Source of the DNA: Rubrivivax sp.
Lineage (GTDB): Bacteria; Pseudomonadota; Gammaproteobacteria; Burkholderiales; Burkholderiaceae_C
Direction of reading: 5' to 3'
DNA length: 40,816 nt
Assembly (NCBI GenBank): GCA_021297985.1
Contig: JAJTGU010000032.1
Location: 1-40,816 of the forward strand
Position 1 is the stretch's first letter. Each line of letters opens with the position of its first letter. The translations under genes were made by a program, and so were the position numbers. Under the pieces are notes generated by a model that saw nothing but the letters and a program-made list of their open reading frames with translations, did not search any database and was not told where the DNA came from. Of this stretch, positions 9,224-28,138 are shown piece after piece.

Positions 9224-10057
9224 TCAGCGAAACCGGCTGCGGAACTCCGAACACAGCGAACGCAACATGCGTTCGTAGTGGACATGATTGTCGGAGCCGG
9301 GTGCTGGATCCGCCTCGCACAAGACCACCGGCGAGCCGTCGTTGCGGCACTCGAGCACCGTGACGCCGACCACGTCGTAGCCAATTCCAGCGGCTGTCCG
9401 TTCGAGCGGAATCGCCCGTGTGAGCATCGCCACAACACGCTGCGCATCCGTGGGCTGATCGTGGTTGTTGCGGGCAGCCTTGGCCCCCGGACTCACGAAG
9501 TCCGGCGCCGCATTGACCAACGAGTACGACACCGTGATGCAACGCGGTGTGGCCTGCCTCGCGAGATAGCCGGTGGCCAGGATTTCGGCATGCAGGCGCG
9601 GCATGGACTTCGAATGCTCCGTCATGCACGCTTTGGCTTCGAGTGCGATCGCCACTTCGGACACGTCGTCGCGGCGATCTTCATACACCACCGGCAACGC
9701 GGCCAAGGTCCGGCGCTGGGCCGCGTCCAACACCACGCCCAATTCGTCGGCAAGGTCGGTGAAAGTCCGACGAGCCGCCTCGTCACGGTCTGGGGGCACC
9801 AAGGTGACCACCAGATCGAGCGTCTTGTTGATCGGCCCGACCATGACGTGGTTGAGCCGAAAGCCCAATCCGCCCACGTCGGCCTTGGCTCGCGCCGCAT
9901 CGCATTGCGACAGCAAGTCAAACAACAGCGTCCAGCATGCAAGCTTGGAATGGTTGTCGCTGCGCGAGTGGTATTGCCAAGCCCGCGTGCTCGCACCCCG
10001 GGTTGTCGGGCGGCTCATGGTCTGGACCAGAATCAGCGGGCCGAGCGGTTGAGGCAT
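9224..10057 (-). CDS. Putative type II restriction endonuclease (PD-(D/E)xK-like), convergent with the MTase
   Basis: 277 aa; YEDRRDDVSEVAIALEAKACMTEHSKSMPRLHAEI fits a D...ExK nuclease core; converges with the C5-MTase with a 12-bp gap. Confidence 0.6.
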   Translation of the reverse strand: MPQPLGPLILVQTMSRPTTRGASTRAWQYHSRSDNHSKLACWTLLFDLLSQCDAARAKADVGGLGFRLNHVMVGPINKTLDLVVTLVPPDRDEAARRTFTDLADELGVVLDAAQRRTLAALPVVYEDRRDDVSEVAIALEAKACMTEHSKSMPRLHAEILATGYLARQATPRCITVSYSLVNAAPDFVSPGAKAARNNHDQPTDAQRVVAMLTRAIPLERTAAGIGYDVVGVTVLECRNDGSPVVLCEADPAPGSDNHVHYERMLRSLCSEFRSRFR

Positions 10058-10238
10058 TCGGTTCTATCGGGGCTGCGCCGGCGCAGACTGTAGCCCCAAC
10101 CAAATGCCCGGCCGATCTGGCACGGACGTGGCGAACCCCCGGCTCTTTCGGCGGCTGGCGCTCGCAAGCGACCTCTCTTCGGGTCATTTCTGCACACTGA
10201 GCCAAACTCACACCCCCAGAGCCGAGAACGAGACCGCC

Positions 10239-11908: not shown

Positions 11909-12066
11909 CTTGCGTTGGTGGTCCATCGCGGCGCCACTGCGGCCCAGGCCTGGTGCACACGGGTCTTGACGCGCACCGTGTTGCGGCACCAGCGCTTCGG
12001 CGGTGAAGGCCCGCCGAAGCGCGCATCCATAGCTGACTGACCCTCCAGGGCCACCGTAGTCGGCCC

Positions 12067-12082
12067 TGGCACGGCTCATGCT
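12067..12082 (+). promoter_or_regulatory. Sigma54 (-24/-12) promoter upstream of the GntR/UTRA regulator
   Basis: TGGCACGGCTCATGCT versus consensus TGGCACG-N4-TTGCW; one mismatch, correct GG-to-GC spacing. Confidence 0.65.
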
Positions 12083-12089
12083 AGTCATG

Positions 12090-12107
12090 ACCTGACATAA
12101 CAGGTTG
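12090..12107 (+). promoter_or_regulatory. Candidate GntR operator 1
   Basis: ACCTGACATAACAGGTTG, palindromic arms ACCTG/CAGGT, 15/18 identical to the element at 24364-24381. Confidence 0.65.
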
Positions 12108-12117
12108 AGTCGACTTG

Positions 12118-12888
12118 ATGAATGCCGTCCGGAAAACCGCGCCACCCCGCGCCGTCGAATCGAAGGTCGTGCCGATGTCATCGGTGCCGATGCACGCGCA
12201 GATCCGCGAGATCGTCCGCCGGCGGGTGCTTGACGGCACGTACGCGCCCCACAGTCAGATGCCGTCCGAGAGCCAGATGATGGAGGCCTTCTCGGTCAGC
12301 CGCATCACCGTCAGACAAGCCCTTGGCGACCTGCAGAAGGAGGGCCTGATCTTCAAGGTGGCGGGCAAGGGCAGCTTCGTCGCCAAGCCCAAGGCATTCC
12401 AGAGTCTGTCTCGCCTGCAGGGGTTTGGCGAGGCGATGACGCCCTCGGGCTACGAGACCTTCTCGCAGGTGATCAGCATGCGCAAGGTGTCCGCCAACGA
12501 GGCGGTCGCGCACCGCCTGCGTCTCAAGCCCGGCGCGGCCGTCTTCGAGATCCAGCGCCTGCGGTTCCTGAATCGCGAGCCGATCTCCGTGGACCAGAGC
12601 TACTTCCCGCTCGAGCTTGGCAAGCGACTGGCCACCGAAGACCTGCCGACCCGGGACATCTTCGCGATCCTCGAAAACGACTACGGGTTGCACCTCACGC
12701 ACGCCGACGTCCAGATCGAGGCGATCTCGGCAGACGAGGGCCTGGCCCGCCAACTCCGCATCTCCGAGGCGTCACCGCTGCTGCGCATCGAGCGTCTGAC
12801 CTACGCCGACGAACAGCCGGTCGACTTCGAGTACCTCTATTACCGAGGCGACGCTTTCCAGTACCGCCTGCGCATCGACCGCACCTGA
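12118..12888 (+). CDS. GntR-family regulator, HutC/UTRA subfamily
   Basis: N-terminal wHTH MHAQIREIVRRRVLDGTYAPHSQMPSESQMMEAFSVSRITVRQALGDLQKEGLIFKVAGKGSFV; UTRA-type C-terminus ending FEYLYYRGDAFQYRLRIDRT. Confidence 0.93.
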   Translation: MNAVRKTAPPRAVESKVVPMSSVPMHAQIREIVRRRVLDGTYAPHSQMPSESQMMEAFSVSRITVRQALGDLQKEGLIFKVAGKGSFVAKPKAFQSLSRLQGFGEAMTPSGYETFSQVISMRKVSANEAVAHRLRLKPGAAVFEIQRLRFLNREPISVDQSYFPLELGKRLATEDLPTRDIFAILENDYGLHLTHADVQIEAISADEGLARQLRISEASPLLRIERLTYADEQPVDFEYLYYRGDAFQYRLRIDRT

Positions 12889-12899
12889 AAGCCAAGAAC

Positions 12900-14630
12900 A
12901 TGAACACCATCGAAATGGATTTCGACCTCGTTGTCATCGGCGGAGGCACCGGAGGCCCGATGGCCGCCGTCAAGGCCAAGGAGCGAAACCCGAAGCTGCG
13001 TGTCCTGCTCATCGACAAGGCCAACGTGAAGCGCAGCGGCGCCATCTCGATGGGGATGGACGGCCTGAACAACGCGGTCATTCCGGGCCATGCAACGCCC
13101 GAGCAGTACGTCAAGGAGATCACCGTCGCCAACGACGGCATCGTCGACCAGGAAGCCGTGATGGCCTACGCCACCGGCAGCTTCGACATGATCCAGGAAC
13201 TCGACCGCTGGGGCGTGAAGTTCGAGAAGGACGAGACCGGCGACTACTCGGTGCGCAAGGTCCACCACCTCGGCGCCTACGTCTTGCCGATGCCCGAGGG
13301 GCACCACATGAAGCGCATCCTCTACCGGCAGCTCAAGCGGGCGCGCGTGGAGATCACCAACCGCGTCGTCGTGACCCGGGTGCTGACGGGTGCCAACGGC
13401 GCCGTGGCGGCCGTGATGGGTTTCGACTGCCGCACGGCCGAACTGGTCCTGATCCGGACCAAGGCCGCCGTGATCACCACCGGCGCTGCCGGCCGGCTGG
13501 GCCTGCCGGCCTCGGGCTACCTGATGGGCACCTACGAAAACCCCACCAACTGCGGCGACGGCCACGCGATGGCCTTCCATGCGGGTGCCGACCTGGCCAA
13601 CCTGGAATGCTTCCAGATCAACCCGCTGATCAAGGACTACAACGGCCCGGCCTGCGCCTACGTCACCGGTCCGCTGGGCGGCTACACCGCCAACAACAAG
13701 GGCGAACGCTTCATCGAGTGCGACTACTGGAGCGGCCAGATGATGCAGGAGTTCTACAACGAGCTCCTGAGCGGCAACGGGCCTGTGTTCCTCAAGCTCG
13801 ACCACCTGGCGGAAGAGACCATCCAGGAGATCGAGACCATCCTGCACAGCAATGAAAGGCCGAGCCGCGGCCGCTTCCATGAAGGGCGGGGCACCAATTA
13901 CCGCAAGAGCCTGGTCGAGATGCACATCTCGGAAATCGGCTTCTGCAGCGGCCACAGCGCCTCAGGCATCCACGTCAATGCGCGTGGCGAGACCTCGGTG
14001 AAAGGCCTCTACGCCGCTGGCGACTGCGCCAGCGTGCCGCACAGCTACATGCTCGGCGCCTTCGTCTACGGCAAGCTTTGCGGAGAGAACGCGGCCGACT
14101 ACTGCGGCGGGGTCGACGCGGTGCCCCACGATGCCGCCGCACAAGCGGCGGAAGCCGCGCGCATCGCGGCACCCTTGCAGCGCCAGGGCGGGCTCACGCC
14201 CTACCAGATCGAATACAAGACCCGACGACTCGTCAACGACTACCTGCAACCGCCCAAGGTCACGAGCAAGTTCCACATCGGGCTGCGGCGATTCGCCGAG
14301 ATCCGTGAAGACCTCGAGTCGATGTCCGCAGCCGATCCGCACGAGCTGATGCGCGCGATGGAGGCGCATTCCATCCTCGACTGCGCCGAGATGGCCGCCC
14401 ACGCATCGCTATTCCGCACCGAAAGCCGATGGGGCCTCTACCACCACTATGTGGACCACCCCCAGCGAGACGATGAGAACTGGTTCTGTCACTCGCTGCT
14501 GAGCCGCGACGCGCAGGGCGCGATGTCGCTGCGAAAGAAGGCGGTCGAACCCTACATCGTCGCGGTCGACGAAGAAGAGCGGACCGCCTACCAGCGCCTG
14601 CGCGTGGCCACCAGCGCGCAGGCCGCCTGA
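12900..14630 (+). CDS. FAD-dependent fumarate reductase/APS-reductase-alpha-like flavoprotein
   Basis: Dinucleotide-binding FDLVVIGGGTGGPMAAVKAKE, substrate-side GHSASGIHVNARGETSVKGLYAAGDC; followed by AprB-like ferredoxin. Confidence 0.85.
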   Translation: MNTIEMDFDLVVIGGGTGGPMAAVKAKERNPKLRVLLIDKANVKRSGAISMGMDGLNNAVIPGHATPEQYVKEITVANDGIVDQEAVMAYATGSFDMIQELDRWGVKFEKDETGDYSVRKVHHLGAYVLPMPEGHHMKRILYRQLKRARVEITNRVVVTRVLTGANGAVAAVMGFDCRTAELVLIRTKAAVITTGAAGRLGLPASGYLMGTYENPTNCGDGHAMAFHAGADLANLECFQINPLIKDYNGPACAYVTGPLGGYTANNKGERFIECDYWSGQMMQEFYNELLSGNGPVFLKLDHLAEETIQEIETILHSNERPSRGRFHEGRGTNYRKSLVEMHISEIGFCSGHSASGIHVNARGETSVKGLYAAGDCASVPHSYMLGAFVYGKLCGENAADYCGGVDAVPHDAAAQAAEAARIAAPLQRQGGLTPYQIEYKTRRLVNDYLQPPKVTSKFHIGLRRFAEIREDLESMSAADPHELMRAMEAHSILDCAEMAAHASLFRTESRWGLYHHYVDHPQRDDENWFCHSLLSRDAQGAMSLRKKAVEPYIVAVDEEERTAYQRLRVATSAQAA

Positions 14631-14676
14631 ACCCGAGCGACTGCGACGGCTCACCCAACATCCGCAGGAGAACCCC

Positions 14677-14910
14677 ATGGCCCTGGCCACCACCTTGACC
14701 CAAGTGCCCGTCCGTGTGGACGACGCCAAATGCATCGCCGAAAAGGGCTGCACCGTCTGCGTCGACGTCTGTCCGCTGGACGTGCTGGTCATCAACCACG
14801 TGACGCGCAAGGCCCAGATGAAGTTCGACGAGTGCTGGTACTGCCTGCCCTGCGAGCAGGACTGCCCGACCGGCGCCATCACGGTCGACATTCCCTACCT
14901 GTTGCGCTGA
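14677..14910 (+). CDS. AprB-like 4Fe-4S ferredoxin
   Basis: 77 aa; CIAEKGCTVCVDVCPLDVLVI and CWYCLPCEQDCPTGAI, two cluster motifs. Confidence 0.88.
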   Translation: MALATTLTQVPVRVDDAKCIAEKGCTVCVDVCPLDVLVINHVTRKAQMKFDECWYCLPCEQDCPTGAITVDIPYLLR

Positions 14911-14922
14911 GCGGAGCCTGCC

Positions 14923-15894
14923 TTGAACACCGAAGCCGCGACGCTCCAGCAGCGCCTGACCGACCCCGACGCCACGGTCCGCCGGCTGGCGGTGATGGAA
15001 CTGCCCTACAGCGACGAGGACGACACGGTCTCGCTGCTGCTGCCTTGCCTGGCCGACAGCGACGCGCTGGTGCGCATCGAGGCCATCCGCGGCCTGGAGG
15101 GGTTCGAGGAGCTGCACGTCGTGGAATCGCTGGCACCGATGCTGCTCGACGCCGAACCTGCCGTGCGCAAGGCCGCGGGCGAGGTGCTGTCCGAACTGAA
15201 GGACACCGCCTCGGCCGCACCGCTGCTGCCGCTGCTGACAGGCGGGCCGCCCGAGGTGCGCGCGCTGGCCTTCCACGCGGTGCGCGCGCTGCGTTCGCCG
15301 CTGGCTTTCATGCCGGCAATGGCCGCGTTGCGTGACGCCGACGCCGCTGTGCGACGCGAGGCCGTCGGCGTGCTCGGCTACCTCAAGGATCCGGCCGCGA
15401 TCGGCGACCTGGCCGAAGTGGCCGCCAACGACCCCGACGTGGAGGTGCGCCGAATCGCGGTCGGCGCGCTCGGCTACGCCAGCTCGGTCAGCGTGCTGCC
15501 GGCCTTGACCCGCGCCTTGAACGACCGCGGCTGGATGGTGCGCGACGAAGCGGCCGGGGTCATCGGCAAACTGCGCCTGGCGCTGGCCATCCCCGACCTG
15601 GTGAAGGCGATGCAGGACGACTACTGGCAGGTGCGCGTGAAGGCGGCACGCAGCCTCGGGCTTCTGAAGGCCGAAGCCGGTCTGCCGTCGCTGGTGGACT
15701 CGCTCACGCACACCATCAGCAACCTGCGCAAGGAAGCCGTGATCGCCCTGGGCGAAATCGGCGACACACGCGCCATCGCGCCTCTGGAGGGCGCGCTGGC
15801 CGATGCCGACCCCGACGTGCGCAAGCTGGCGCGGCTGGCGCTCACCTCCATTGGTCTGGCCCAGAAGGCGCAAGGCGCAGGGGCATTGCCATGA
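14923..15894 (+). CDS. HEAT-repeat protein (PBS-lyase-type repeats)
   Basis: 323 aa made of ~30-aa repeats such as DADAAVRREAVGVLGYLKDPAAI / DPDVEVRRIAVGALGYASSVSVL; TTG start. Confidence 0.88.
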   Translation: MNTEAATLQQRLTDPDATVRRLAVMELPYSDEDDTVSLLLPCLADSDALVRIEAIRGLEGFEELHVVESLAPMLLDAEPAVRKAAGEVLSELKDTASAAPLLPLLTGGPPEVRALAFHAVRALRSPLAFMPAMAALRDADAAVRREAVGVLGYLKDPAAIGDLAEVAANDPDVEVRRIAVGALGYASSVSVLPALTRALNDRGWMVRDEAAGVIGKLRLALAIPDLVKAMQDDYWQVRVKAARSLGLLKAEAGLPSLVDSLTHTISNLRKEAVIALGEIGDTRAIAPLEGALADADPDVRKLARLALTSIGLAQKAQGAGALP

Positions 15895-16220
15895 CCTTCG
15901 TCGTCACTGAAGCCTGCATCCGATGCAAGTACACCGACTGCGTGTCGGTGTGCCCGGTGGACTGCTTCCACGAGGGGCCGAACTTCCTGGTCATCGACCC
16001 GGAAGTGTGCATCGACTGCGCCGTTTGTGTGCCCGAGTGCCCCGTCGACGCCATCGTGGCCGACAAGGATCTGACCGCTGCCCAGGCCGGATTTCTCGAA
16101 CTCAATGCCCGCCTGGCCGCGAAGTGGCCCGTGATCGCCCGAACCGGCGAACCACTGCCGGACGCCGAACACTGGGCCAGCGTGCCTTCGAAGCTTGAAC
16201 ACCTGGCCGAGCCGGCCTAG
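15891..16220 (+). CDS. FdxA-like (7Fe-type) ferredoxin
   Basis: CIRCKYTDCVSVCPVDCFHEGPNFLVIDPEVCIDCAVCVPECPVDAI; ATGA overlap with the HEAT gene. Confidence 0.92.
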   Translation: MTFVVTEACIRCKYTDCVSVCPVDCFHEGPNFLVIDPEVCIDCAVCVPECPVDAIVADKDLTAAQAGFLELNARLAAKWPVIARTGEPLPDAEHWASVPSKLEHLAEPA

Positions 16221-16296
16221 ATCGACCCGGACCACCAGGAGCTCGCCATGCCCAGCAAGGCCCACGCGCCGCACACGCGCTGCAGACCACGTCCAG

Positions 16297-16312
16297 TGGC
16301 ACCGGTCTTGCG
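16297..16312 (+). promoter_or_regulatory. Weaker sigma54-like element upstream of the NosL-extended SBP
   Basis: TGGCACCGGTCTTGCG; 10/12 versus TGGCACG-N4-TTGCW; correct -24/-12 spacing. Confidence 0.4.
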
Positions 16313-16369
16313 ATGTCAGGAGACAAGAGGCCTCACCGCCGCCCATTCACCTGATCGGGGAACCCCCAC

Positions 16370-17800
16370 ATGAAGCCACCACTGTTTCGAAGGATCGCCG
16401 CACTGGCGCTGATCTTGGGCACCGGCCTGGCGGCCAATGCCGCCCAGGAAGTGGTCATCGGCATCGGCACCCAGAACACCACCACCAACACCGTCACCGG
16501 CGGCGTGGTGCTCAAGGAACTGAAGCTGCTGGAAAAGCACCTGCCCAGGACCGGGAAGTACAAGGACATCAAGTTCAAGCTCGACTGGCAGAACTTCACC
16601 AGCGGGCCACCCATCACCAACGGCATGATGGCCAAGAAGCTGCACATCGGAATGATGGGCGACTACCCCTTGCTCGTGAACGGCGCCACCGGCCAAAGCC
16701 AGTCGGGCAACGAGACCCACCTGGTCGCCGTCATTGCCTACAACGCATTCGGTTCCGGCAACGGCCTGGTCGTGCACAAGGACTCGCCGTACTTCGAACT
16801 GGCCGACCTGAAAGGCAAGAACGTCTCGGTGCCCTTCGGCTCGGCCGCGCACGGCATGGTGCTGCAGGCCATGCAAAGCCGCGGCTGGCCCGAGAACTTC
16901 TGGAACCTGTCGAGCCAGAGCCCCGAAGTCGGCACCACCAACCTGCAGGAGAAGAAGATCGACGGGCACGCCAACTTCGTGCCCTTTGCCGACCTTTTGC
17001 CCTACCGCGGCTTTGCGCGCAAGATCTTCGACGGCGCCGAGACAAAGGTGCCGACGTTCCACGGCGTGGTCGTGCGCAAGGACTTCGCCACGCAGTACCC
17101 CGAGGTGGTGGTGGCCTACATCAAGGCACTGATGGAGGCCAACGCCTGGGTGCGCGCCAACCCGGCTGCGGCAGCGGCCAAGATCGAGGAGTGGACCAAG
17201 ATCGAGAAGGAGGTGGCCTACCTCTACCTCGGCCCGGGTGGCATCCACACGCTGGATCCGAGCATCAAGCCGCGGTGGCTCGACACCATCAGGACCGGCC
17301 ACGAAGTGCTGACACGGCTCAACCGCGTGAAGTCCCTGGACATCAACGCCTGGGTCGACGAGCGCTTCGTGCGCCAGGCCTTTGCCGAGAGCAAGCTGGA
17401 CTACGAAGCCCAGAAGCAGACCCTCGCCAACTACGACATCACCGGCACCGATGCCGTGTGCAAGCTGCCCATCACCCGACCCAGAGAAGCCGGGGAGGTG
17501 TGGGTCGAAGGCGCCGCGAGCCCCACGGCCCATGCCAGCGCCTTGTGCACCTTGGTTGCCGTGAACCGCGCGACGGCAGCCGGCAAGACGGTCAACGTGG
17601 CGTATGTGTACGACAAGGCCCTGGGCATCAAGGTCTTCGCAGACAAGGCGTTTTTCGCCCTGAATGCCCGTGACCCGAAGAAGCCCGTGGTCACGCCCTT
17701 CCTGCTGAAGAAGGATGCCGAGGCCCATGCGGCCAGCAGCGGCGGCAAGCTGGCCAGCTATTCCGACGTGCTGGCGCTGGCCAAGGATCTGGCGCCCTGA
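16370..17800 (+). CDS. ABC substrate-binding protein (nitrate/sulfonate/SsuA type) with NosL-like C-terminal extension
   Basis: Signal peptide, SBP core DLKGKNVSVPFGSAAHGMVLQAM; extra C-terminus KVFADKAFFALNARDPKKPVVTPFLLKKDAEAHAASSGGKLASYSDVLAL resembling NosL. Confidence 0.8.
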   Translation: MKPPLFRRIAALALILGTGLAANAAQEVVIGIGTQNTTTNTVTGGVVLKELKLLEKHLPRTGKYKDIKFKLDWQNFTSGPPITNGMMAKKLHIGMMGDYPLLVNGATGQSQSGNETHLVAVIAYNAFGSGNGLVVHKDSPYFELADLKGKNVSVPFGSAAHGMVLQAMQSRGWPENFWNLSSQSPEVGTTNLQEKKIDGHANFVPFADLLPYRGFARKIFDGAETKVPTFHGVVVRKDFATQYPEVVVAYIKALMEANAWVRANPAAAAAKIEEWTKIEKEVAYLYLGPGGIHTLDPSIKPRWLDTIRTGHEVLTRLNRVKSLDINAWVDERFVRQAFAESKLDYEAQKQTLANYDITGTDAVCKLPITRPREAGEVWVEGAASPTAHASALCTLVAVNRATAAGKTVNVAYVYDKALGIKVFADKAFFALNARDPKKPVVTPFLLKKDAEAHAASSGGKLASYSDVLALAKDLAP

Positions 17801-17855
17801 ACCGACACCGCTTGCGCGTCCTCGCCTTCAGCCACTTCACCGAAGGGCCACCCCC

Positions 17856-18832
17856 ATGTCCACCGTTCCCTTGCGTGCGCTCGGCGCCGTTGTGGAAGAC
17901 CGCGAGCCGCCACCCGCCACGGCCGCTGCGGCCAACACGGCACCTGCCTTGGTCGTGGTGCCCGGGGCCGCTGCAGGCACTCCGGTACTGAGCGCGCCTG
18001 CACGGAGAGCATCGGAGCCCGGCGCCGCAGCACGACTGGTGGGTGCGATACGCGCGCAGGCCACGGCGCTGCTGCTGGGCGTTTGTTCCCTGGGTGCGCT
18101 GGTGTTGTTCTGGCATCTGGCCACCACCTACCGCTGGGACTTCTATATCCGCTTCACCAACCTGCCCACGCCGCTGGAGGTCGCCACGCAGTTCGGCCTG
18201 GCGATGGACAACCCCAAGTTCCTCACCAACGTGGGCATGAGCCTGCGCCGCATCGCGATCGGCTTTGCTGTTGCGACGCTGCTGGGTGTCGCCCTGGGCC
18301 TGGCCATCGGCCGCTACAAGCTGCTGCGGCAGTTGATGTTTCCGGCCGTCGAGGCGCTGCGTCCCATCCCGGCCATCGCCTGGGTGCCGATCTCCATCAT
18401 GCTGTGGCCCGACAACGAGGTGAGCATCGTCTTCATCACGTTCATCGGCGCCTTCTTCCCGATCCTGCTCAACACCGTGGCCGGTGTACAGGCGGTGGAC
18501 GCGGTGCTGCTGCGGGCCGGCCAGTGCCTGGGCGCCCGCGAGCCACAACTGATGTGGCATGTGGTGCTGCCGGGCGCGGCGCCGCAGGTCTTCACAGGTC
18601 TGGCGGTGGGCATGGGCGTGGCCTGGGTGTCGCTGATTGCCGCCGAGATGATCTCCGGTCAGTTCGGCGTGGGCTACTTCACCTGGGAGGCCTACTCGCT
18701 GATCAGCTATGCCGACATCGTGCTGGGCATGATCACCATCGGCGTGCTGGGCCTGGGCTGCAGCTGGCTCATCCGTGCCGCCAGCCGGCTGGCGCTGCCA
18801 TGGCTCGTCTACAGCAAACCTTCGGGCCGGAT

Positions 18833-18836
<4 letters not shown>
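17856..18836 (+). CDS. ABC transporter permease (SsuC/TauC-like)
   Basis: Hydrophobic helices plus EAA loop CLGAREPQLMWHVVLPGAAPQVFTGLAVGMGVAWVSLIAAEMI; in-frame ATG at 17856. Confidence 0.92.
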
Positions 18837-19741
<905 letters not shown>

Positions 19742-19831
19742 CCACGTCATCCGCCTGCAAGCGCCTGCAAGCGCCTTCAGTTGCGCGCTGCGGTTTCCAA
19801 CCCTGAATCTTCACTGCCGAAAGGTCCTTCC

Positions 19832-20815
19832 ATGCCGTCGATTCGCCGCCACTTGCTTGCCATCGCAATGAGCCTGATCGCGCTCGGCTTCGGCACCAGC
19901 GCGCTCGCGCAGGAGAAGCTGACGCTGGCGCAGAACCGGTCGCCCATCTCGGGTGTTTCCATCGTCGCCAAGCAGAAGAAGTTCTTCGAGAAGCACGGCC
20001 TGGACGTGACGGTGGCCAACTTCACCACCGGCAAACAGTGTCTGGATACGGTGGTCGGTGGGGGCGCGGACATCGCCACCACGGCCGAAGCCCCGACCAC
20101 CGCGGCGGCGATGTCAGGCCAGAAGATCGCCTTCCTGGCACGCACTCAGTACTCCGACTTGAAGACCCTCACAGCGGCCTCTGCCGGCATCAAGACCGCG
20201 CAAGACCTGAAGGGCAAACGCCTGGCCTTCACCGCCGGCACGGGCGGCGAGGTCTACACGATGTCGCTGCTCAAGAAAGCCGGTCTCGGCAAGGACGATG
20301 TGCAGCTCGTCAACCTGCGGCCCCAGGACATGGTCAATGCCATGGCCAGCGGCAGCATCGACGCCTACAACACCTGGGAGCCGCACATCAACAACGGCAA
20401 GAAGGCGCTGGGTGCCAAGGCAGCCGAGATCGACACCCGGGGCGTTTATGCCGAGACCTTCAACATCGTCGTCATGCAGGACCTGCTGGCCAAGCGCAGG
20501 CCCGTGGTCCTGGCCTTCATGCGTGCCTTGATCGAGGCCGAGGAGTGGATGAAGGCGAACCGTGAAGAGTCCATCGCCGTGGTGGCCGAGTTCGTCGGCA
20601 TGCCGCGTGAGGACCTCGCCGCCGTCTACGACAACTTCATCTACGAAGTGGTGCTGGATGACCGCACGCTCAACGTGCTGACGCAGCATGCCGCCTGGCG
20701 CTTGTCCAGCGGCAATGCACCCACCGGTGCCACGATGCCCGACTTCCGCAAGGTGATCGCGGCCGACGTGCTGAAGAGCATCGCCCCGGCGCGGGTGAAG
20801 GTGCCAGGCTTGTGA
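19832..20815 (+). CDS. ABC substrate-binding protein (SsuA/ThiY/NMT1-like)
   Basis: Signal peptide; GLDVTVANFTTGKQCLDTVVGGGADIATTAEAPTT; DLKGKRLAFTAGTGGEVY. Confidence 0.92.
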   Translation: MPSIRRHLLAIAMSLIALGFGTSALAQEKLTLAQNRSPISGVSIVAKQKKFFEKHGLDVTVANFTTGKQCLDTVVGGGADIATTAEAPTTAAAMSGQKIAFLARTQYSDLKTLTAASAGIKTAQDLKGKRLAFTAGTGGEVYTMSLLKKAGLGKDDVQLVNLRPQDMVNAMASGSIDAYNTWEPHINNGKKALGAKAAEIDTRGVYAETFNIVVMQDLLAKRRPVVLAFMRALIEAEEWMKANREESIAVVAEFVGMPREDLAAVYDNFIYEVVLDDRTLNVLTQHAAWRLSSGNAPTGATMPDFRKVIAADVLKSIAPARVKVPGL

Positions 20816-21552
20816 GCCGCGCGGCACGCTGGCTCTCGCTGCCGCTGTTCTTCGGGCTTTGGCAGGGGGTGTCGCTGTCAGGCTGGGTGAACCCGACCTT
20901 GTTTCCGCCGCCCACCGCCGTGCTGCAGGCGCTTTGGCTGTGGTTGACCGACGGGCCATTGCTGCGCGACCTGGGTATGAGCGTGTCGCGCATCGTGGTC
21001 GGCTTTGCTGCCGGCGCGCTGGTGGGTGTTGGCGTGGGCGTGCTCACCGGCTCGACGGCGCTGGCGGCGGCACTGCTCGCGCCCGTGTTCCAGTTGCTGC
21101 GGCCGATCCCACCGATTGCCTTCGTGCCCCTGGTCATCCTGTGGTTCGGCTTGTCCGAATGGGGCAAGTGGTTCCTGGTGTTCTGGGGCGTCTTCTTCAC
21201 CGTGTGGGTGGCCACGCACCTGGGCATCCAGCGGGTCGATCCGATCTGGATGCGGGCGGCGCAGTGCCTGGGCGCGCCACGTCGCGCGCAGATGTTGCAG
21301 GTGATGCTGCCGGCGGCGCTGCCCACCATCCTCGTGGGTCTTCGCACCGCGGTCAGTGTCTCCTTCTACACCCTGGTGGCGGCCGAGCTGGCGGGCACGT
21401 TTTCGGGCGTGGCTTACCGCATCGAGATCGCGCATCAGAACATGCAGACGGCCCAGATGATGGGTGGGCTGCTGGTGTTGGGTGCCTTGTCTTCGCTGGC
21501 CGACAAGGGCTTTGCTGCGCTGTCGCGCCGCTGGGTGTGGTGGCAAGGATGA
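20812..21552 (+). CDS. ABC transporter permease (SsuC-like)
   Basis: EAA loop AQCLGAPRRAQMLQVMLPAALPTILVGLRTAVSVSFYTLVAAEL; GTG start overlapping previous stop. Confidence 0.92.
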   Translation: MSRAARWLSLPLFFGLWQGVSLSGWVNPTLFPPPTAVLQALWLWLTDGPLLRDLGMSVSRIVVGFAAGALVGVGVGVLTGSTALAAALLAPVFQLLRPIPPIAFVPLVILWFGLSEWGKWFLVFWGVFFTVWVATHLGIQRVDPIWMRAAQCLGAPRRAQMLQVMLPAALPTILVGLRTAVSVSFYTLVAAELAGTFSGVAYRIEIAHQNMQTAQMMGGLLVLGALSSLADKGFAALSRRWVWWQG

Positions 21553-22910
21553 GCATCGAAACGGGTTTCCAGGCCGTGCGTGCAGCGCTGGCCCAAGAGC
21601 GTGTGTCGCCAGAGGGTCGGGTGGACGCTGCGCTGCAGCGCATTGCCGCCTGGCCCGACCCGCATGTCTGGCTGCACCTGGCCCCGCGTTCTGCGCTGAT
21701 GGCCCGTGCCGCCGCACTGCGCGCGGGGCCGGACAAACCGCTGCATGGGCTGCTGTTCGGGGTGAAGGACAACATCGACGTGGCCGGGATGCCGACCACC
21801 GCAGCCTGCCCCGACTATGCCTATGCGCCACGGGTCTCGTCACCGGCGGTGCAGCAGTTGGAGGCCGCCGGCGCCCTGTGCCTGGGCAAGCTGAACATGG
21901 ACCAGTTTGCCAACGGCCTGGTCGGCAGGCGTGGGCCCACGCCGTGCCGCAATGCGTTCAGTGCGGACCACATACCGGGGGGCTCCAGTTCCGGCTCGGG
22001 CGTGGCGGTGGCGGCCCACATGGTCGACTTCGCGCTGGGCACCGACACCGGCGGCTCCGGGCGCGTGCCCGCTGCCTTGAACAACGTGGTCGGGCTCAAG
22101 CAATCGGTCGGCCTGGTCAGCAACCGCGGCTCGGTGGCGGTGAACCGCACGCTGGACTGCATCAACCCCTATGCGCTGAGCTGTGGCGACGCGCTGGAAG
22201 TGCTGCAGACCATCCGCGGCTACGACCCGCAGTCCTACTTCTCGCGGCCCGAGGCCGGCGCCTTGGCCCTGGTACACGCGCCCATCCAGCGCTTCCGCTT
22301 TGCGGTGCCCAGGGCATCGCAACTGGAGTTCTTCGGCGACGCACTGGCCGAAGCCCAGTACCACCTGGCCCTGGCCCGCCTGCAGGTCATGGGCGGCGAG
22401 CGTGTGGAGATCGACTTCTCACCGTACCTGGAGGCCGGTCGCCTGCTCTTCTTTGGCCCGTGGATCGCCGAACGATTCCTGGTGGTGCGCGACTTCTTTC
22501 GTCGCAGCCCGGGCAGCTTCCATCCGGTGACGCGGCAGATCTTCGAAACCGCCGACCGCTTCAGCGCCACCGAGGCCTTCGAGGCCTGGCATGCACTGGA
22601 TGCTCTCAAGCGCCAGGTCCGCGCGCAGCAGCAGGGCTTCGACGTGCTGGCCCTGCCCACGGTCGGCACGGTCTTCCGCGTCGATGCAGTGGCCGCCGAA
22701 CCCGTGCAGCTGAACACCCACAACGGCCGCTACACCTATTTCGTGAACCTGCTGGACCTGTGTGCCGTGGCCGTGCCCGCTGGGCTGCGTCCCGACGGCC
22801 TTCCGTTTGGCCTTCAGCTGGTGGCGCCCGCCCTGCACGACGCCATCGTGGTGCAGCTGGCAGCGCAGTTCCAGGCCGCCCACGGGCAGCCCGCCGGCTT
22901 GGTCTTCTGA
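21549..22910 (+). CDS. Amidase-signature hydrolase, allophanate-hydrolase (AtzF amidase-domain)-like
   Basis: GVKDNIDVAG (Lys), IPGGSSSGSGVAVA (cis-Ser), GTDTGGSGRVPAALNNVVGLK (Ser), TLDCINPYAL; ATGA overlap with permease. Confidence 0.88.
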   Translation: MSIETGFQAVRAALAQERVSPEGRVDAALQRIAAWPDPHVWLHLAPRSALMARAAALRAGPDKPLHGLLFGVKDNIDVAGMPTTAACPDYAYAPRVSSPAVQQLEAAGALCLGKLNMDQFANGLVGRRGPTPCRNAFSADHIPGGSSSGSGVAVAAHMVDFALGTDTGGSGRVPAALNNVVGLKQSVGLVSNRGSVAVNRTLDCINPYALSCGDALEVLQTIRGYDPQSYFSRPEAGALALVHAPIQRFRFAVPRASQLEFFGDALAEAQYHLALARLQVMGGERVEIDFSPYLEAGRLLFFGPWIAERFLVVRDFFRRSPGSFHPVTRQIFETADRFSATEAFEAWHALDALKRQVRAQQQGFDVLALPTVGTVFRVDAVAAEPVQLNTHNGRYTYFVNLLDLCAVAVPAGLRPDGLPFGLQLVAPALHDAIVVQLAAQFQAAHGQPAGLVF

Positions 22911-22950
22911 CAGATCCGAACCCCGGTCCCCATCGCAAGGAAGTTGCAGC

Positions 22951-24231
22951 ATGACCCCCGAAATCGAAAACAAGATCATGGCCAGCATCACCGAGGCCGA
23001 CTGGCTGGCCTTGGCGCGCGAGCTGATCCCGGCCGGCCAACCCCGGGCCGAAAACCCGCTGGACCCCGACATGCCCCACGGCCATGAGGAAGGCATTGCC
23101 AACGCCGTGGCCGCTGAGTTGCAGGGCTATGGCCTGCCGGTCGAGCTGGTGGCCAAGCGCCCAGGTCGCCCCAATGTGATTGGCACCTGGGCTGGCACCG
23201 GCGGCGGGCCGGTGGTGATCCTGAACGACCACCTCGACACCTATCCCGCCGGCGACCCCGCCGACTGGACCGAGACCGGGGGCAATCCGTTTCACGCCAC
23301 CCGCAAGGGAGACTTTCTCTTCGCACGCGGCACGTCAGACACGCGTGGCAACCTGGCTTGCACGCTGCTGGCTGTCAAGGCTCTGATCCAGGCCGGCCTG
23401 AAGCCGCGTGGCACGCTGAAGTGCGTGTACACGGTCGACGAAGAAAAGGACGGACCTGACGGTTCGATCTTCCTGCTCGACGAGTGGGGGCTGAAAGGCG
23501 ATGTCGAGATCACCTGCGAGCCCACCGGCTGGACCCAGCCCGATGGCCGGTGGGGCATGGACATCGCCACCTCCAATTCGGGGCACTTTCTCGTCCAGCT
23601 CGAGGTGGTGGGCCAACAAGGTCATCTTTGGCGGCCGGACACGGCCGTAAACCCGATCGACAAGACCATGGGTCTGCTGGCCGCGTTCGGCAGCATGCGC
23701 TTCACCCACCAGCCGCCCGCCACCTATGGCGGCACGCCGCCTCGAGTGACCGCACTGCGCATCCAAGGCGGCGTCGCGCGCGAGATGCAGTTCACTCCCG
23801 GACGCTGCAGCACCGTACTGGGTCTGGTGGGCCTGGTCCCCGGAATGACGGCCGAATCCGTGATCGCCGACCTGCAGGCCGTGATCGCGACAGCCGCAGC
23901 GGCCGACTCCGAACTGCGGGCCACGGTCCGGCCGTACCCCGGCGCGCTGTTCGTGTCGGCCACTGCGGAGCAAGACCCGGCGGCGGAACCCGTCAAGGCG
24001 CTGAGCAAGGCTTACGCGCGGGTGGTGGGGAGCACACCCAGGCTCTACCGCAAGAACGCTTTCAACGACACGATCCGGTTCTCCGAGCGCGGCATCCCTG
24101 CGGTGACCTTTGGCCCGGGTGAAGACGGTTGGCCGCCGAAGAACGAGTACATCCGCATCGAGAAGTCCGTGGCCGCGACACGCATCCTGGCGCTGATGCT
24201 GATCGACCTGCTGGGCTGCGAGCCCACGTAG
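22951..24231 (+). CDS. M20-family (ArgE/DapE/YlmB-like) metallohydrolase
   Basis: VVILNDHLDTYPAG, FARGTSDTRGNLACTLLAVKAL, YTVDEEKDG, CEPTGWTQPDG, QQGHLWRPDTAVNPI, FGPGEDGWPPKNEYI. Confidence 0.88.
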   Translation: MTPEIENKIMASITEADWLALARELIPAGQPRAENPLDPDMPHGHEEGIANAVAAELQGYGLPVELVAKRPGRPNVIGTWAGTGGGPVVILNDHLDTYPAGDPADWTETGGNPFHATRKGDFLFARGTSDTRGNLACTLLAVKALIQAGLKPRGTLKCVYTVDEEKDGPDGSIFLLDEWGLKGDVEITCEPTGWTQPDGRWGMDIATSNSGHFLVQLEVVGQQGHLWRPDTAVNPIDKTMGLLAAFGSMRFTHQPPATYGGTPPRVTALRIQGGVAREMQFTPGRCSTVLGLVGLVPGMTAESVIADLQAVIATAAAADSELRATVRPYPGALFVSATAEQDPAAEPVKALSKAYARVVGSTPRLYRKNAFNDTIRFSERGIPAVTFGPGEDGWPPKNEYIRIEKSVAATRILALMLIDLLGCEPT

Positions 24232-24340
24232 ACCGGCAGGCCGCACTGCGGCAGGGCGCGCGCAACCGCTGCTGGTGCATCCCACCACTGGCGCTGAGCG
24301 TCAGCCACCCATCGCCGACGACTTGACCGGCGCCAGCCGC

Positions 24341-24356
24341 TGGCATGCCACTTGCA
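24341..24356 (+). promoter_or_regulatory. Sigma54 (-24/-12) promoter upstream of the third SBP
   Basis: TGGCATGCCACTTGCA; one mismatch versus TGGCACG-N4-TTGCW. Confidence 0.7.
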
Positions 24357-24361
24357 CTGCC

Positions 24362-24381
24362 CAACCTGTCATGACAAGTTG
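24362..24381 (+). promoter_or_regulatory. Candidate GntR operator 2
   Basis: CAACCTGTCATGACAAGTTG, 20-bp palindrome with a single mismatched pair, same spacing to the -12 GC as operator 1. Confidence 0.7.
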
Positions 24382-24429: not shown

Positions 24430-25440
24430 ATGAAGCTTCTACTGTTGTCGTTGCTCAGTAGCCTGTTGCTGGCGTTCTCCGGCCACGGCCATGGCCAGAC
24501 GCGGCCGATCCGGATCGGCTTCCAGACAGGCGACATCAATGTCCTGCTGATGTATGCCTCCGGTGCGGGTCTTCTCAGCAAGCAAGGTCTTGAGGTCAAG
24601 ATGACGCCGTTTCCGGCCGGGCCGGCCATGCTGCCAGCGCTGGCGGCGGCGGAGATCGACATCGCATGGATGGGTGAATTCCCTGCGGTGACCGGCTATT
24701 CGAACGCCATGCCCATCGAGATACTGATGATGGAGCGGCTTGACTTCACCAACGTCCGTTTGGTGGCTGCGCCCAACTCCGGCATCACGAACGTACAAGG
24801 GCTCAAGGGCAAGCGGGTGGCGGTGTCGGTGGGCTCGACCAGTCACAACCATCTGTTGCGCGCACTGGCGCAAGCGGGCCTGAAGCAAGAGGATGTGACG
24901 CTGGTCAATCTGACTCCGGCCAACATGCCTCCAGCGTTCGTGGCGGGCCAGGTGGACGCTGCCTTCACGTGGGAGCCCAACATCGGGTTGATGGAAAAGG
25001 CCGGCGGCACGGTGATCGCCACCACGCGCAGCCTCGGCATGATCACCGGTGGCATCTGGGTGGCCCGCCAGGCGTTCACGCGTGAGAACCCGGAAACCGT
25101 GCAGGCCTTCCTGCGCGCATGGCGCGAGGCCCAGCGAGCCTACGCAGCGAACCCGCAACCCGTACGCCAGTTCGAGGCCAAGCGCGTGAATCAGACGCCT
25201 CAGGAGTTCGACGAGCTGATCGCGCGCCAGACGGCAAGTCACCCTTCGTTTGAAGCCCTGCTGACCGCCGACTTCATGGGCCCCCCGGGCCGTGAACTGG
25301 ATTCGCGCCTGATGAAGCACCTGCAAGGCATCGGCAACTTCCTGCTCGGCGAAAAGCGTGTCAATGCCCTGCCCTCTGACTGGACCCGACTGCTCAACAC
25401 GCAGCCGATTCAGACCTTCCTCGCCAACGAGAAGAAATGA
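24430..25440 (+). CDS. ABC substrate-binding protein (SsuA/NMT1-like)
   Basis: Signal peptide; RIGFQTGDINVLLMYASGAGLLSKQGLEVKMTPFPAGPAMLPALAAAEIDIAWMGEFP. Confidence 0.92.
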   Translation: MKLLLLSLLSSLLLAFSGHGHGQTRPIRIGFQTGDINVLLMYASGAGLLSKQGLEVKMTPFPAGPAMLPALAAAEIDIAWMGEFPAVTGYSNAMPIEILMMERLDFTNVRLVAAPNSGITNVQGLKGKRVAVSVGSTSHNHLLRALAQAGLKQEDVTLVNLTPANMPPAFVAGQVDAAFTWEPNIGLMEKAGGTVIATTRSLGMITGGIWVARQAFTRENPETVQAFLRAWREAQRAYAANPQPVRQFEAKRVNQTPQEFDELIARQTASHPSFEALLTADFMGPPGRELDSRLMKHLQGIGNFLLGEKRVNALPSDWTRLLNTQPIQTFLANEKK

Positions 25441-25453
25441 ACGGGGCCCCGTC

Positions 25454-26269
25454 ATGACGACCTGGGGCACCCCACCGGCAGCCGTCGGCGTGGCACACCC
25501 CAAGCCCGAGGTTGTGCGGCTTGAACGCGTCGGGCTCGACTTCGATGGACGCCCGGTGCTCAAGGACCTCTCGTTGTCCATCCGCCGAGACGAAGTGGTG
25601 TCGGTGCTGGGTCCGTCGGGCTGTGGCAAGACGACCTTGCTGAACATCGTGGCGGGCTTTCTGCAGGCCAGCAGCGGAGTCGCCTTGGCGAATGGGCGCG
25701 AGATCAGCGGGCCCGGGCCTGACCGCGGCGTGGTGTTCCAGTCGTACGCACTCTTCGATTGGATGACCGTGCAGGACAACATTGCGTTCTCGCTCAGCTG
25801 CGCGGGCCGGCCGCGTTCCGAACAACTCGAGGTCGCGCAGCAGATGGTGCAGTTGGTCGGCTTGACCGGCTTCGAGAAGGCCTACCCTTACCAGTTGTCG
25901 GGTGGCATGAAACAACGCTGCGGGCTGGCCCGGGTGCTGGCATCGAAGCCCAGCGTGATGCTGATGGACGAGCCCTTTGCCGCCGTCGACGTCCAGACGC
26001 GTGAGACCTTGCAAGAGGAGATCCTGCGCATCCAGGCCGCCACCGGGTGCACGATCGTCTTCATCACCCACAGCATCGAGGAGGCCGTGTTCCTGGGCCA
26101 CCGGATCCTGTTGATGCAGCGCGGCGGCTTCGGCGCCTTCAAGGAATACGCCGTTGAACTGCCCGAACCGCGCTCCAACCCCGAGAACCGGCTGCACGCC
26201 GAGTTCGTGCGCTTGCGCGGCGAGGTCTACCGCGACCTGCGCGCCTCCTATGCGGCGGAGGCGGCGTGA
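25454..26269 (+). CDS. ABC transporter ATP-binding protein (SsuB/TauB-like)
   Basis: GPSGCGKTTLLNIVAGF, LSGGMKQRCGLARVLA, VMLMDEPFAAVD. Confidence 0.95.
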   Translation: MTTWGTPPAAVGVAHPKPEVVRLERVGLDFDGRPVLKDLSLSIRRDEVVSVLGPSGCGKTTLLNIVAGFLQASSGVALANGREISGPGPDRGVVFQSYALFDWMTVQDNIAFSLSCAGRPRSEQLEVAQQMVQLVGLTGFEKAYPYQLSGGMKQRCGLARVLASKPSVMLMDEPFAAVDVQTRETLQEEILRIQAATGCTIVFITHSIEEAVFLGHRILLMQRGGFGAFKEYAVELPEPRSNPENRLHAEFVRLRGEVYRDLRASYAAEAA

Positions 26270-27051
26270 GTCCGGCTCTTCGTGCGCGCGCTCGCTACAT
26301 CGCACTGGCCGTGCTGTCGCCCCTTTGCCTTTTGGGGCTGTGGGTGCTGGCCACCAGCCAGGGCTGGGTGAAGTCGGTGCTCTTGCCGCCCCCGCAGGCG
26401 GTGCTGGCCAGCCTGACCGACATGGTCACGCAGGGCTACTCCGGCATCAGCCTTGCCAAGCATCTGGCCGCGAGCCTGACGCGCGTGGGGATCGCCTTCT
26501 TTGCGGGAGCGCTGCTGGGCGTGACGCTCGGCCTGTTGCGCGGCCGCGTGCCCGCCATCGACGCGTTGTTGCTGGTGCCCGCGGAGATGCTGAGGCCGAT
26601 ACCGCCACTGGGCCTCATCCCGTTGTTCATCCTGTGGTTCGGCATTGGCGAGCTGTCGAAGGTGCTGCTGATCTTTCTCTCGGTGTTCCTGATCATGATG
26701 GTCAACGCGCACGCCGGCGCGCGCAGCTGCCCGGCGGACCTGCTGCGTGCGGCTCAGTCGCTGGGGGCGAGCCGGATGCAGGTGTTCGTCCGGGTCGTGT
26801 TTCCGTCGGCGTTGCCGCAGATCACCACGGGCCTGCGCGTGGCCATGGGCACGGGTTTCTCGATCCTGGTGGCGTCGGAGTTGCTCGGTGGTGACCGAGG
26901 TCTGGGTTTCATCATCCTGGACGCCAGCAACTTCTTCCGCACGACGTATGTGTTTGCCGGCATCGTGGTCATCGGCGCCATCGGCCTGGCGTCCGATCGC
27001 CTGATTGCCTGGGCTGGCAGACGCCTCGTGCATTGGGACGGGCGGCGCTGA
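26266..27051 (+). CDS. ABC transporter permease (SsuC/TauC-like)
   Basis: EAA loop AQSLGASRMQVFVRVVFPSALPQITTGLRVAMGTGFSILVASELLGGDRGLGF; GTG overlapping ATPase stop. Confidence 0.92.
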   Translation: MSPALRARARYIALAVLSPLCLLGLWVLATSQGWVKSVLLPPPQAVLASLTDMVTQGYSGISLAKHLAASLTRVGIAFFAGALLGVTLGLLRGRVPAIDALLLVPAEMLRPIPPLGLIPLFILWFGIGELSKVLLIFLSVFLIMMVNAHAGARSCPADLLRAAQSLGASRMQVFVRVVFPSALPQITTGLRVAMGTGFSILVASELLGGDRGLGFIILDASNFFRTTYVFAGIVVIGAIGLASDRLIAWAGRRLVHWDGRR

Positions 27052-27053
27052 CC

Positions 27054-27344
27054 GTGGTTGTCCCAGTCGAGATCACCGACCACCGCCTGAGCGGCGTGCT
27101 CGAGATCACCTGGTCGGACGGCCAACACAGCCGCCTGCACCACGCCTTGCTGCGTGAACAGTGCCGGTGTGCCGCCTGTGAGCAGCAGCGCCGGCACGGG
27201 TCAGGCATCCCGCGCCCAGACCCGACTCTGAGGCTTGAGAGGGTCGAGCCCGTGGGCGAGCACGGGCTGAACCTCGCATTCAGCGACGGCCACGACCGGG
27301 GGATCTACCCTTGGGCCTACCTGCGCGAGCTCAGCGCACTCTGA
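27054..27344 (+). CDS. DUF971 (gamma-butyrobetaine-hydroxylase N-terminal-like) protein
   Basis: ITDHRLSGVLEITWSDGQHSRLHHALLREQCRCAACEQQ...FSDGHDRGIYPWAYLREL; ORF-track start 27033 overlaps permease, GTG at 27054 preferred. Confidence 0.85.
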   Translation: MVVPVEITDHRLSGVLEITWSDGQHSRLHHALLREQCRCAACEQQRRHGSGIPRPDPTLRLERVEPVGEHGLNLAFSDGHDRGIYPWAYLRELSAL

Positions 27345-27361
27345 CGAAGACCCCAAACACC

Positions 27362-28138
27362 ATGTCCAACACCGGCATCGAACGCGTGCTGAGCGTTCAC
27401 CACTGGAACGAAACCCTCTTCAGCTTCCGCACCACCCGCGACGCGGCGCTGCGCTTCCGCAACGGCCACTTCGTGATGCTGGGCCTGCCGGTCGAAGGCA
27501 AGCCGCTGCTGCGGGCCTACAGCGTGGCCAGCGCCAACCACGCGGAGTTCCTCGAATTCCTGAGCATCAAGGTGCCGGACGGCCCACTCACGTCGCGCCT
27601 GCAGCACCTGAAACCAGGCGACGATCTCATCGTCGGCCGCAAGCCGGTCGGCAGCCTGGTGGTGGACGACCTGCGGCCGGGACGCAATGTGTACCTGCTG
27701 TCCACCGGGACCGGATTGGCGCCCTTCATGAGCATCATCCAGGACCCCGACACCTACGAACGCTTCGAGAAGGTCGTGCTGATCCACGGCGTGCGTCAGG
27801 TCAGCGAACTGGCCTATGCCAACTTCATCGAACACGAGTTGCCCGCGAACGAATTCCTGGGCGAACTGGTGCGCGACAAGCTGGTGTACTACCCCACGGT
27901 CACGCGCGAGCCCTTTCGCCATCAGGGCCGGCTGACCGACGTGATCGAGTCGGGACGCCTCTTCACCGACACGGGACTGCCGCCGCTGGACCCCGAGCTC
28001 GACCGCGCCATGATCTGCGGCAGCGCCGCGATGCTCGCCGACACCAGCCGATTGCTCGACGCACGCGGCTTTCGCATCAGCCCGCGCCAGGGTGAACCGG
28101 GCGACTACGTGATCGAGCGCGCATTCGTCGAGAAGTAA
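27362..28138 (+). CDS. fpr: Ferredoxin-NADP(+) reductase
   Basis: RAYSVASANHAEFLEFLSIKVPDGPLTSRLQHL, LLSTGTGLAPFMSII, terminal GDYVIERAFVEK typical of Fpr. Confidence 0.93.
   Translation: MSNTGIERVLSVHHWNETLFSFRTTRDAALRFRNGHFVMLGLPVEGKPLLRAYSVASANHAEFLEFLSIKVPDGPLTSRLQHLKPGDDLIVGRKPVGSLVVDDLRPGRNVYLLSTGTGLAPFMSIIQDPDTYERFEKVVLIHGVRQVSELAYANFIEHELPANEFLGELVRDKLVYYPTVTREPFRHQGRLTDVIESGRLFTDTGLPPLDPELDRAMICGSAAMLADTSRLLDARGFRISPRQGEPGDYVIERAFVEK

What the first reader, a model, noticed from the sequence alone, without database searches (positions are those of the whole stretch)
12067..24381. Twin composite promoters: sigma54 -24/-12 plus a shared GntR-type palindrome at identical spacing
Seen directly: 12067 TGGCACGGCTCATGCTAGTCATGACCTGACATAACAGGTTG and 24341 TGGCATGCCACTTGCACTGCCCAACCTGTCATGACAAGTTG. 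Each starts with a sigma54 element one mismatch from TGGCACG-N4-TTGCW. Each then has ACCTGWCATRACARGTTG (15/18 identical; the second copy is a 20-bp palindrome with one mismatched pair). The palindrome centre is exactly 17 bp downstream of the centre of the -12 GC in both. The intervening DNA is not conserved, so this is not a simple duplication. The palindrome would overlap +1 of an RpoN transcript. One copy precedes the HutC/UTRA regulator gene and the other precedes the third SBP, implying autoregulation and a regulon in which a GntR protein blocks sigma54 promoters. RpoN control would point to nitrogen scavenging.
Basis: partly seen in the sequence, partly recalled or inferred. Interest (0 to 1): 0.82.

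Follow-up and report, generated by a model that had tools for sequence, protein, structure and literature searches.

The report
Nitrogen-controlled promoters with shared repressor operator
Two promoters in this proteobacterial genome carry, at one fixed spacing, a nitrogen-starvation (sigma54) promoter and a docking site for a local GntR-type repressor, and the same arrangement is conserved in dozens of related bacteria in front of an uncharacterised uptake-and-reduction operon.

Summary
The operator occurs exactly at only two places in the 4.73-Mb genome. The sigma54 element alone is no commoner than its reversed control, so the support comes from conservation. In 43 orthologous GntR promoters (Variovorax, Polaromonas, Azoarcus, Methyloversatilis, Limnobacter, Thiobacillus and others) TGGCA and TGC are invariant; the operator starts 23 nt from the first T in nearly all, 24 or 22 in a few. 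A composite scan of 399 genomes of the order gave 13 genomes, none for the reversed pattern. NtrC-type boxes lie upstream, often paired 31 bp apart (14 exact against 0.33 expected), and the genome has rpoN and ntrC. Best reading: an NtrC-activated sigma54 promoter blocked by its own HutC-subfamily repressor bound over +1. This is the logic known for HutC at hutU, here on another operon. In Burkholderia/Pseudomonas orthologues the operator is kept but the promoter is sigma70-like: one change on the tree. Substrate and inducer are unknown. No experiment was done.

The parts
11942..11956 (+). imperfect NtrC-type box GCCCAGGCCTGGTGC (7 of 8 core bases), centred about -144 from the predicted +1
   Evidence: same position in L068, L077, L078, L080; exact boxes in more distant relatives
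12067..12082 (+). sigma54 -24/-12 element TGGCACGGCTCATGCT (promoter of the GntR-flavoprotein operon)
12090..12107 (+). GntR/HutC-type operator ACCTGACATAACAGGTTG over the predicted +1 (12093)
12118..12888 (+). GntR/UTRA (HutC-subfamily) regulator, 256 aa, predicted repressor and autoregulator
   Evidence: GntR PF00392, UTRA PF07702; orthologues
12900..14630 (+). FAD flavoprotein (NF006131/PRK08275), relative of PAPS/APS reductase alpha subunits
14677..14910 (+). 77-aa 4Fe-4S ferredoxin
14923..15894 (+). HEAT-repeat protein
15891..16220 (+). 109-aa ferredoxin (Fer4 plus DUF3470)
16370..17800 (+). SsuA/TauA-type substrate-binding protein 1
17715..18836 (+). ABC permease 1 (mechanical ORF; true start probably later)
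18083..19741 (+). ABC ATPase 1, ABC_tran at residues 295-433 (mechanical ORF; gene lies in its 3' part)
19781..20815 (+). substrate-binding protein 2
20812..21552 (+). ABC permease 2
20859..22910 (+). amidase-signature hydrolase (mechanical ORF; domain at residues 255-663)
22762..24231 (+). M20-family hydrolase (mechanical ORF; domain from residue 154)
24341..24356 (+). sigma54 -24/-12 element TGGCATGCCACTTGCA (promoter of the SBP3 transport unit)
24362..24381 (+). GntR/HutC-type operator CAACCTGTCATGACAAGTTG, 20-bp palindrome with one mismatched pair, over the predicted +1 (24367)
24430..25440 (+). substrate-binding protein 3 (SsuA family over cut-off), probable start ATG 24430 after GGAG
25358..26269 (+). 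ABC ATPase 3
26266..27051 (+). ABC permease 3
27311..28138 (+). ferredoxin-NAD(P) reductase-like protein (FAD_binding_6 plus NAD_binding_1); last gene of the core operon in relatives

Best explanation
Each site is one promoter under two controls. RNA polymerase with sigma54 (RpoN) sits on the -24/-12 element and is switched on by NtrC-P bound to boxes about 115-160 bp upstream when nitrogen is short. The HutC-subfamily GntR repressor encoded at 12118-12888 binds the palindrome that covers +1 and blocks promoter opening or escape until an unknown inducer, presumably the transported compound or a product of it, releases it. Transcription thus needs nitrogen starvation AND inducer. Promoter 1 drives the repressor itself (autoregulation) and the flavoprotein-ferredoxin-HEAT-ferredoxin-ABC transporter operon; promoter 2 drives the third transporter. 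Shown by sequence: element positions, conservation, spacing, boxes, gene content. Inferred: that this GntR protein binds the operator, that it represses, that NtrC is the activator, that the AND logic holds.
For: TGGCA and TGC invariant and Y37/43, R35/43, W43/43 at consensus positions in 43 orthologous promoters, with the bases between -24 and -12 and the 7-nt spacer variable. Operator offset 23 (24 in Thiobacillus/Sulfuriferula-type loci, 22 in one). Composite in 13/399 genomes of the order, reversed control 0; hits with <=2 mismatches precede GntR+flavoprotein or SBP3, and only the two 3-mismatch hits do not. Exact GCAC-N7-GTGC boxes: 14 in 43 sigma54-type promoters against 0.33 expected from dinucleotide shuffles, 0 in 36 sigma70-type promoters; commonest spacing 31 bp. 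RpoN and NtrC (over TIGR01818 cut-off) in the genome. Operator core TGT-N4-ACA has the same frame as HutC's TGTA-N2-TACA (PMC12977541). The operator stays before GntR even where the promoter class changes.
Against: No binding or expression data. NtrC-type boxes in the window itself are imperfect (7/8 core bases). Window site 1 has ATGC instead of TTGC at -12. The sigma54 element alone is not enriched in this genome. Some relatives (L072, L073) have the operator or a variant but no sigma54 element. Orthologues were drawn by similarity to the GntR protein, and related sequences are not independent.
Confidence: 0.82

Rival explanations
1. Same sigma54 promoter and repressor, but activated by an enhancer-binding protein other than NtrC, so the trigger is not general nitrogen starvation.
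For: The window's own upstream boxes are imperfect, and every sampled genome has at least 10 sigma54-activator domains.
Against: Exact NtrC-type boxes about 40-fold over shuffles and a 31-bp pair spacing in relatives; no exact box in the sigma70-type promoters. The listed sigma54-activator matches of this genome lie on other contigs.
Confidence: 0.1
2. The palindrome is bound by a different regulator than the adjacent GntR protein, or the GntR protein acts as an anti-repressor or activator.
For: Binding was not tested; many GntR paralogues exist in each genome.
Against: The operator precedes orthologues of this gene in both promoter classes, its TGT-N4-ACA frame is that of HutC, and its location over +1 suits repression.
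Confidence: 0.06
3. The -24/-12 likeness is coincidental: the promoters are sigma70 promoters whose operator lies just downstream of a -10, as in Burkholderia.
For: Orthologues in Burkholderia/Pseudomonas carry a -10-like TACACT/TAGACT just before the operator; the sigma54 pattern is not enriched genome-wide.
Against: 43/43 invariant core positions at fixed spacing with variable intervening bases; exact NtrC boxes only in this class.
Confidence: 0.02

Closest known systems
HutC control of the hutU promoter in Pseudomonas (P. fluorescens SBW25, P. aeruginosa PAO1; PMC12977541, PMC8871633)
   Same: HutC-subfamily GntR/UTRA repressor acting on a sigma54 promoter that NtrC activates from two upstream subsites; autoregulation; operator with TGT-N4-ACA frame.
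   Different: Operator ACYTGTCATRACARGT rather than TGTA-N2-TACA; centred at about +5, while HutC's 51-bp footprint is described as overlapping the sigma54 site; no hut genes found in the window; the GntR protein is far below the HutC equivalog cut-off (143 vs 220 bits).
glnAp2-type NtrC promoters (general knowledge)
   Same: Paired NtrC boxes about 30 bp apart, 100-160 bp upstream of a -24/-12 promoter.
   Different: Adds a local repressor operator over +1.
FAD-dependent PAPS/APS reductase (8a8o, 1jnr/2fja) for the main regulated enzyme
   Same: Nearest solved relatives of the flavoprotein (E 4e-55 and 1e-35); those enzymes too use an iron-sulfur partner (own knowledge).
   Different: Residues aligned with AprA Arg265 and Trp234 are Leu243 and a Tyr; regulation and neighbours point to nitrogen rather than sulfate use.

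Membership tests
sigma54 (RpoN) promoter | YTGGCAYR-N-TTGCW with GG and GC 10 bp apart | tested here: met
   Both window sites one mismatch from TGGCACG-N4-TTGCW; 43/43 orthologues keep TGGCA and TGC
sigma54 (RpoN) promoter | rpoN in the genome | tested here: met
   Sigma54_DBD 216 bits on C28
sigma54 (RpoN) promoter | rpoN-dependent transcript with the expected +1 | not testable with these tools
   needs 5'-RACE and an rpoN mutant
NtrC-activated promoter | GCAC-N7-GTGC enhancer boxes 100-160 bp upstream | tested here: inconclusive
   Met for the class of orthologous promoters: 14 exact against 0.33 expected. In the window itself only 7/8 matches
NtrC-activated promoter | ntrC in the genome | tested here: met
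   666.7 bits joined, cut-off 558.6
GntR/UTRA (HutC-subfamily) regulator | GntR HTH plus UTRA domain over curated cut-offs | tested here: met
HutC equivalog (histidine utilization repressor) | score over TIGR02018 cut-off | tested here: not met
   143.4 bits against 220
HutC-type operator | palindrome with TGT-N4-ACA core | tested here: met
   TGTCATRACA in most orthologues and at window site 2; window site 1 has TGACATAACA, one base off in the left half
APS/PAPS reductase alpha subunit | active-site Arg265 and Trp234 of AprA | tested here: not met
   Alignment puts Leu243 and a Tyr there; the role of these residues is from own knowledge

The most novel reading that the evidence does not exclude
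The regulon encodes an undescribed nitrogen-scavenging route: an imported anionic N-containing sulfo compound (for example a sulfamate or amide-linked sulfonate, freed by the amidase and M20 hydrolase) is reduced by the AprA-like flavoprotein, fed by its own reductase and ferredoxins, giving ammonium plus sulfite, which is exported. In support, in Azoarcus/Methyloversatilis-type loci a TauE-family gene next to a PF03601 gene carries a similar composite promoter. The operon also records a single exchange between sigma54 and sigma70 around an operator that stayed at +1.
Probability: 0.2. Interest if true: 0.75.

Novelty: new member of a known kind. Interest (0 to 1): 0.52.

Why it matters
It gives a conserved, testable nitrogen-plus-inducer switch for an operon whose flavoprotein is widespread but functionally unnamed; knowing that it probably responds to NtrC and a local inducer narrows the search for its substrate. 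It also offers a clean case, one branch on the tree, in which a promoter changed sigma class while its repressor site stayed over the transcription start.

Tried and rejected
Genome-wide enrichment of the sigma54 pattern alone: none, so not used as evidence. A third regulon member in this genome: composite at <=3 mismatches gives only the two sites. Histidine utilization (HutC itself): rejected on score. APS/PAPS reductase identity: rejected on active-site residues. Literature searches for sulfamate use, for a TauE/GntR/NtrC sulfonate cluster and for GntR on sigma54/NtrC promoters in Betaproteobacteria listed no description of this operon (titles and abstracts only were looked at for most). 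One acesulfame paper describes an amidase releasing sulfamate and a TauE-like gene, an analogy only. One Pfam call failed on a wrong frame, one region request on length, one paper search on a term.

Full report
What was checked. Site 1: TGGCACGGCTCATGCT at 12067 and ACCTGACATAACAGGTTG at 12090. Site 2: TGGCATGCCACTTGCA at 24341 and ACCTGTCATGACAAGTTG at 24364. The first T of TGGCA and the first A of the operator are 23 nt apart in both, and the -12 GC centre and the operator centre 17 bp apart. With the usual numbering the 16-bp operator core covers about -3 to +13.

Chance. The operator pattern is exact only at these two places in a 4.73-Mb, 340-contig genome; the other places have 2 or 3 mismatches. 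The sigma54 pattern with up to one mismatch has 54 matches against 57 for the reversed control, so by itself it carries no weight. The composite was therefore tested by conservation.

Phylogenetic footprint. GntR orthologues at 88, 86 and 74% identity have both elements at offset 23. A scan of bacterial genomes gave 80 further loci. In 43 GntR promoters, TGGCA and TGC are invariant (the loci were picked with a loose version of this pattern). Positions not used in the selection also follow the sigma54 consensus (Y before TGGCA 37/43, R at position 7 35/43, W after TTGC 43/43), while the bases between the boxes and the 7-nt spacer vary. The offset is 23 in most, 24 in Thiobacillus- and Sulfuriferula-like loci, 22 in one. 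A separate composite scan of 399 genomes of the order, not seeded by the protein, hit 13 genomes, with 0 hits for the reversed pattern. The hits with at most two mismatches all precede GntR orthologues with the flavoprotein gene, except the window's own SBP3 promoter and L167, where the locus ends before the flavoprotein would appear; only the two 3-mismatch hits lie elsewhere.

Activator. NtrC-type boxes (GCAC-N7-GTGC, the core of the published GCACCA-N3-TGGTGC) occur upstream: 14 exact boxes in 43 promoters against 0.33 expected from dinucleotide shuffles, 48 against 7.25 with one mismatch, and no exact box in 36 sigma70-type promoters. An exact box is most often accompanied by another at 31 or 30 bp, as in classical NtrC enhancers. 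In the window the box at 11942-11956 is imperfect, though it sits at the same place in close relatives. The genome encodes RpoN and an NtrC well above the curated cut-off.

Promoter class exchange. In Burkholderia, Paraburkholderia, Caballeronia and Pseudomonas orthologues (57-61% GntR identity) the operator remains (TCTTGTCATAACAAGT or close variants) but no -24/-12 is found at the usual distance. All 36 have a TANNNT hexamer, mostly TACACT or TAGACT, a few bases before the operator, so the operator again covers the expected +1. On a tree of GntR plus flavoprotein the two classes are separated by a single change, on a branch with support 99. With midpoint rooting the sigma54 form is the older; that root is for drawing only. 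This clade also has a rearranged operon. Its lack of the sigma54 form is not for want of the machinery: the genome of L116 has 25 sigma54-activator domains. That these promoters use sigma70 is inferred from sequence.

What is regulated. The conserved core is GntR, an AprA-like flavoprotein, a 77-aa ferredoxin, a HEAT protein, a 109-aa ferredoxin, an SsuA/TauA-type transporter and a ferredoxin-NAD(P) reductase-like protein. In the window a block with SBP2, permease, amidase, M20 hydrolase, SBP3, ATPase and permease is inserted between the first ATPase and the reductase. Relatives G031 and G041 carry that block with its own GntR paralogue (about 50% identical), which was not found in the window's genome. 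Site 2 lies inside this block. In G031 and G041 the SBP3 promoters have weaker composites at offsets 20 and 22. In Azoarcus and Methyloversatilis-type loci a further composite precedes a TauE-family gene next to a PF03601 gene. The nearest solved relatives of the flavoprotein are PAPS and APS reductase alpha subunits, but AprA Arg265 and Trp234 align with Leu and Tyr, so it is not filed as one. The sulfite and N-S idea is a hypothesis.

Mechanism and comparison. The likeliest mechanism is NtrC-driven sigma54 transcription, blocked by the GntR protein over +1 and released by an inducer. This works like HutC at hutU in Pseudomonas, where the HutC footprint overlaps the sigma54 site and NtrC binds two upstream subsites. 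It is not HutC (143 against a 220-bit cut-off). No binding, transcription or growth experiment supports the steps beyond sequence.

Noticed in passing
L113, L116, L118, L120, L122-L156 except L125, L127, L144 (Burkholderia, Paraburkholderia, Caballeronia, Pseudomonas loci): Same operator but a sigma70-like -10 replaces the -24/-12; a single change on the tree, together with operon rearrangement.
   Followed up: yes
L083 8865, L084 8896, L085 8853, L087 and L088 8935, L096 8844: A second composite promoter about 1.1 kb upstream of GntR, before a TauE/SafE-family gene next to a PF03601 gene; offsets 19, 23 or 24.
   Followed up: partly
L074 about 9930-9990 (G041, GntR paralogue promoter): TGGCATGGACCTTGCT followed by ACCTGTCATGACAG at offset 34, i.e. 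23 plus about one helical turn.
   Followed up: no
GntR promoters of the sigma54 class, e.g. window 12084-12105: In many loci TCATRAC occurs just upstream of the operator, making a 10-bp direct repeat (TCATRACCTG TCATRACAGG); absent at site 2.
   Followed up: no
window 19781-24231: SBP2-permease-amidase-M20 genes sit inside the operon; in relatives G031 and G041 such genes come with their own GntR paralogue, not found in this genome.
   Followed up: partly
window 30865-31545 (-): Molybdopterin oxidoreductase domain gene (PF00174, sulfite-oxidase type) near the regulon.
   Followed up: no
window 8018-9211: C-5 cytosine DNA methylase domain gene upstream of the regulon.
   Followed up: no
window 10104-11876: Wax ester synthase/diacylglycerol acyltransferase gene directly upstream of the GntR promoter.
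   Followed up: no
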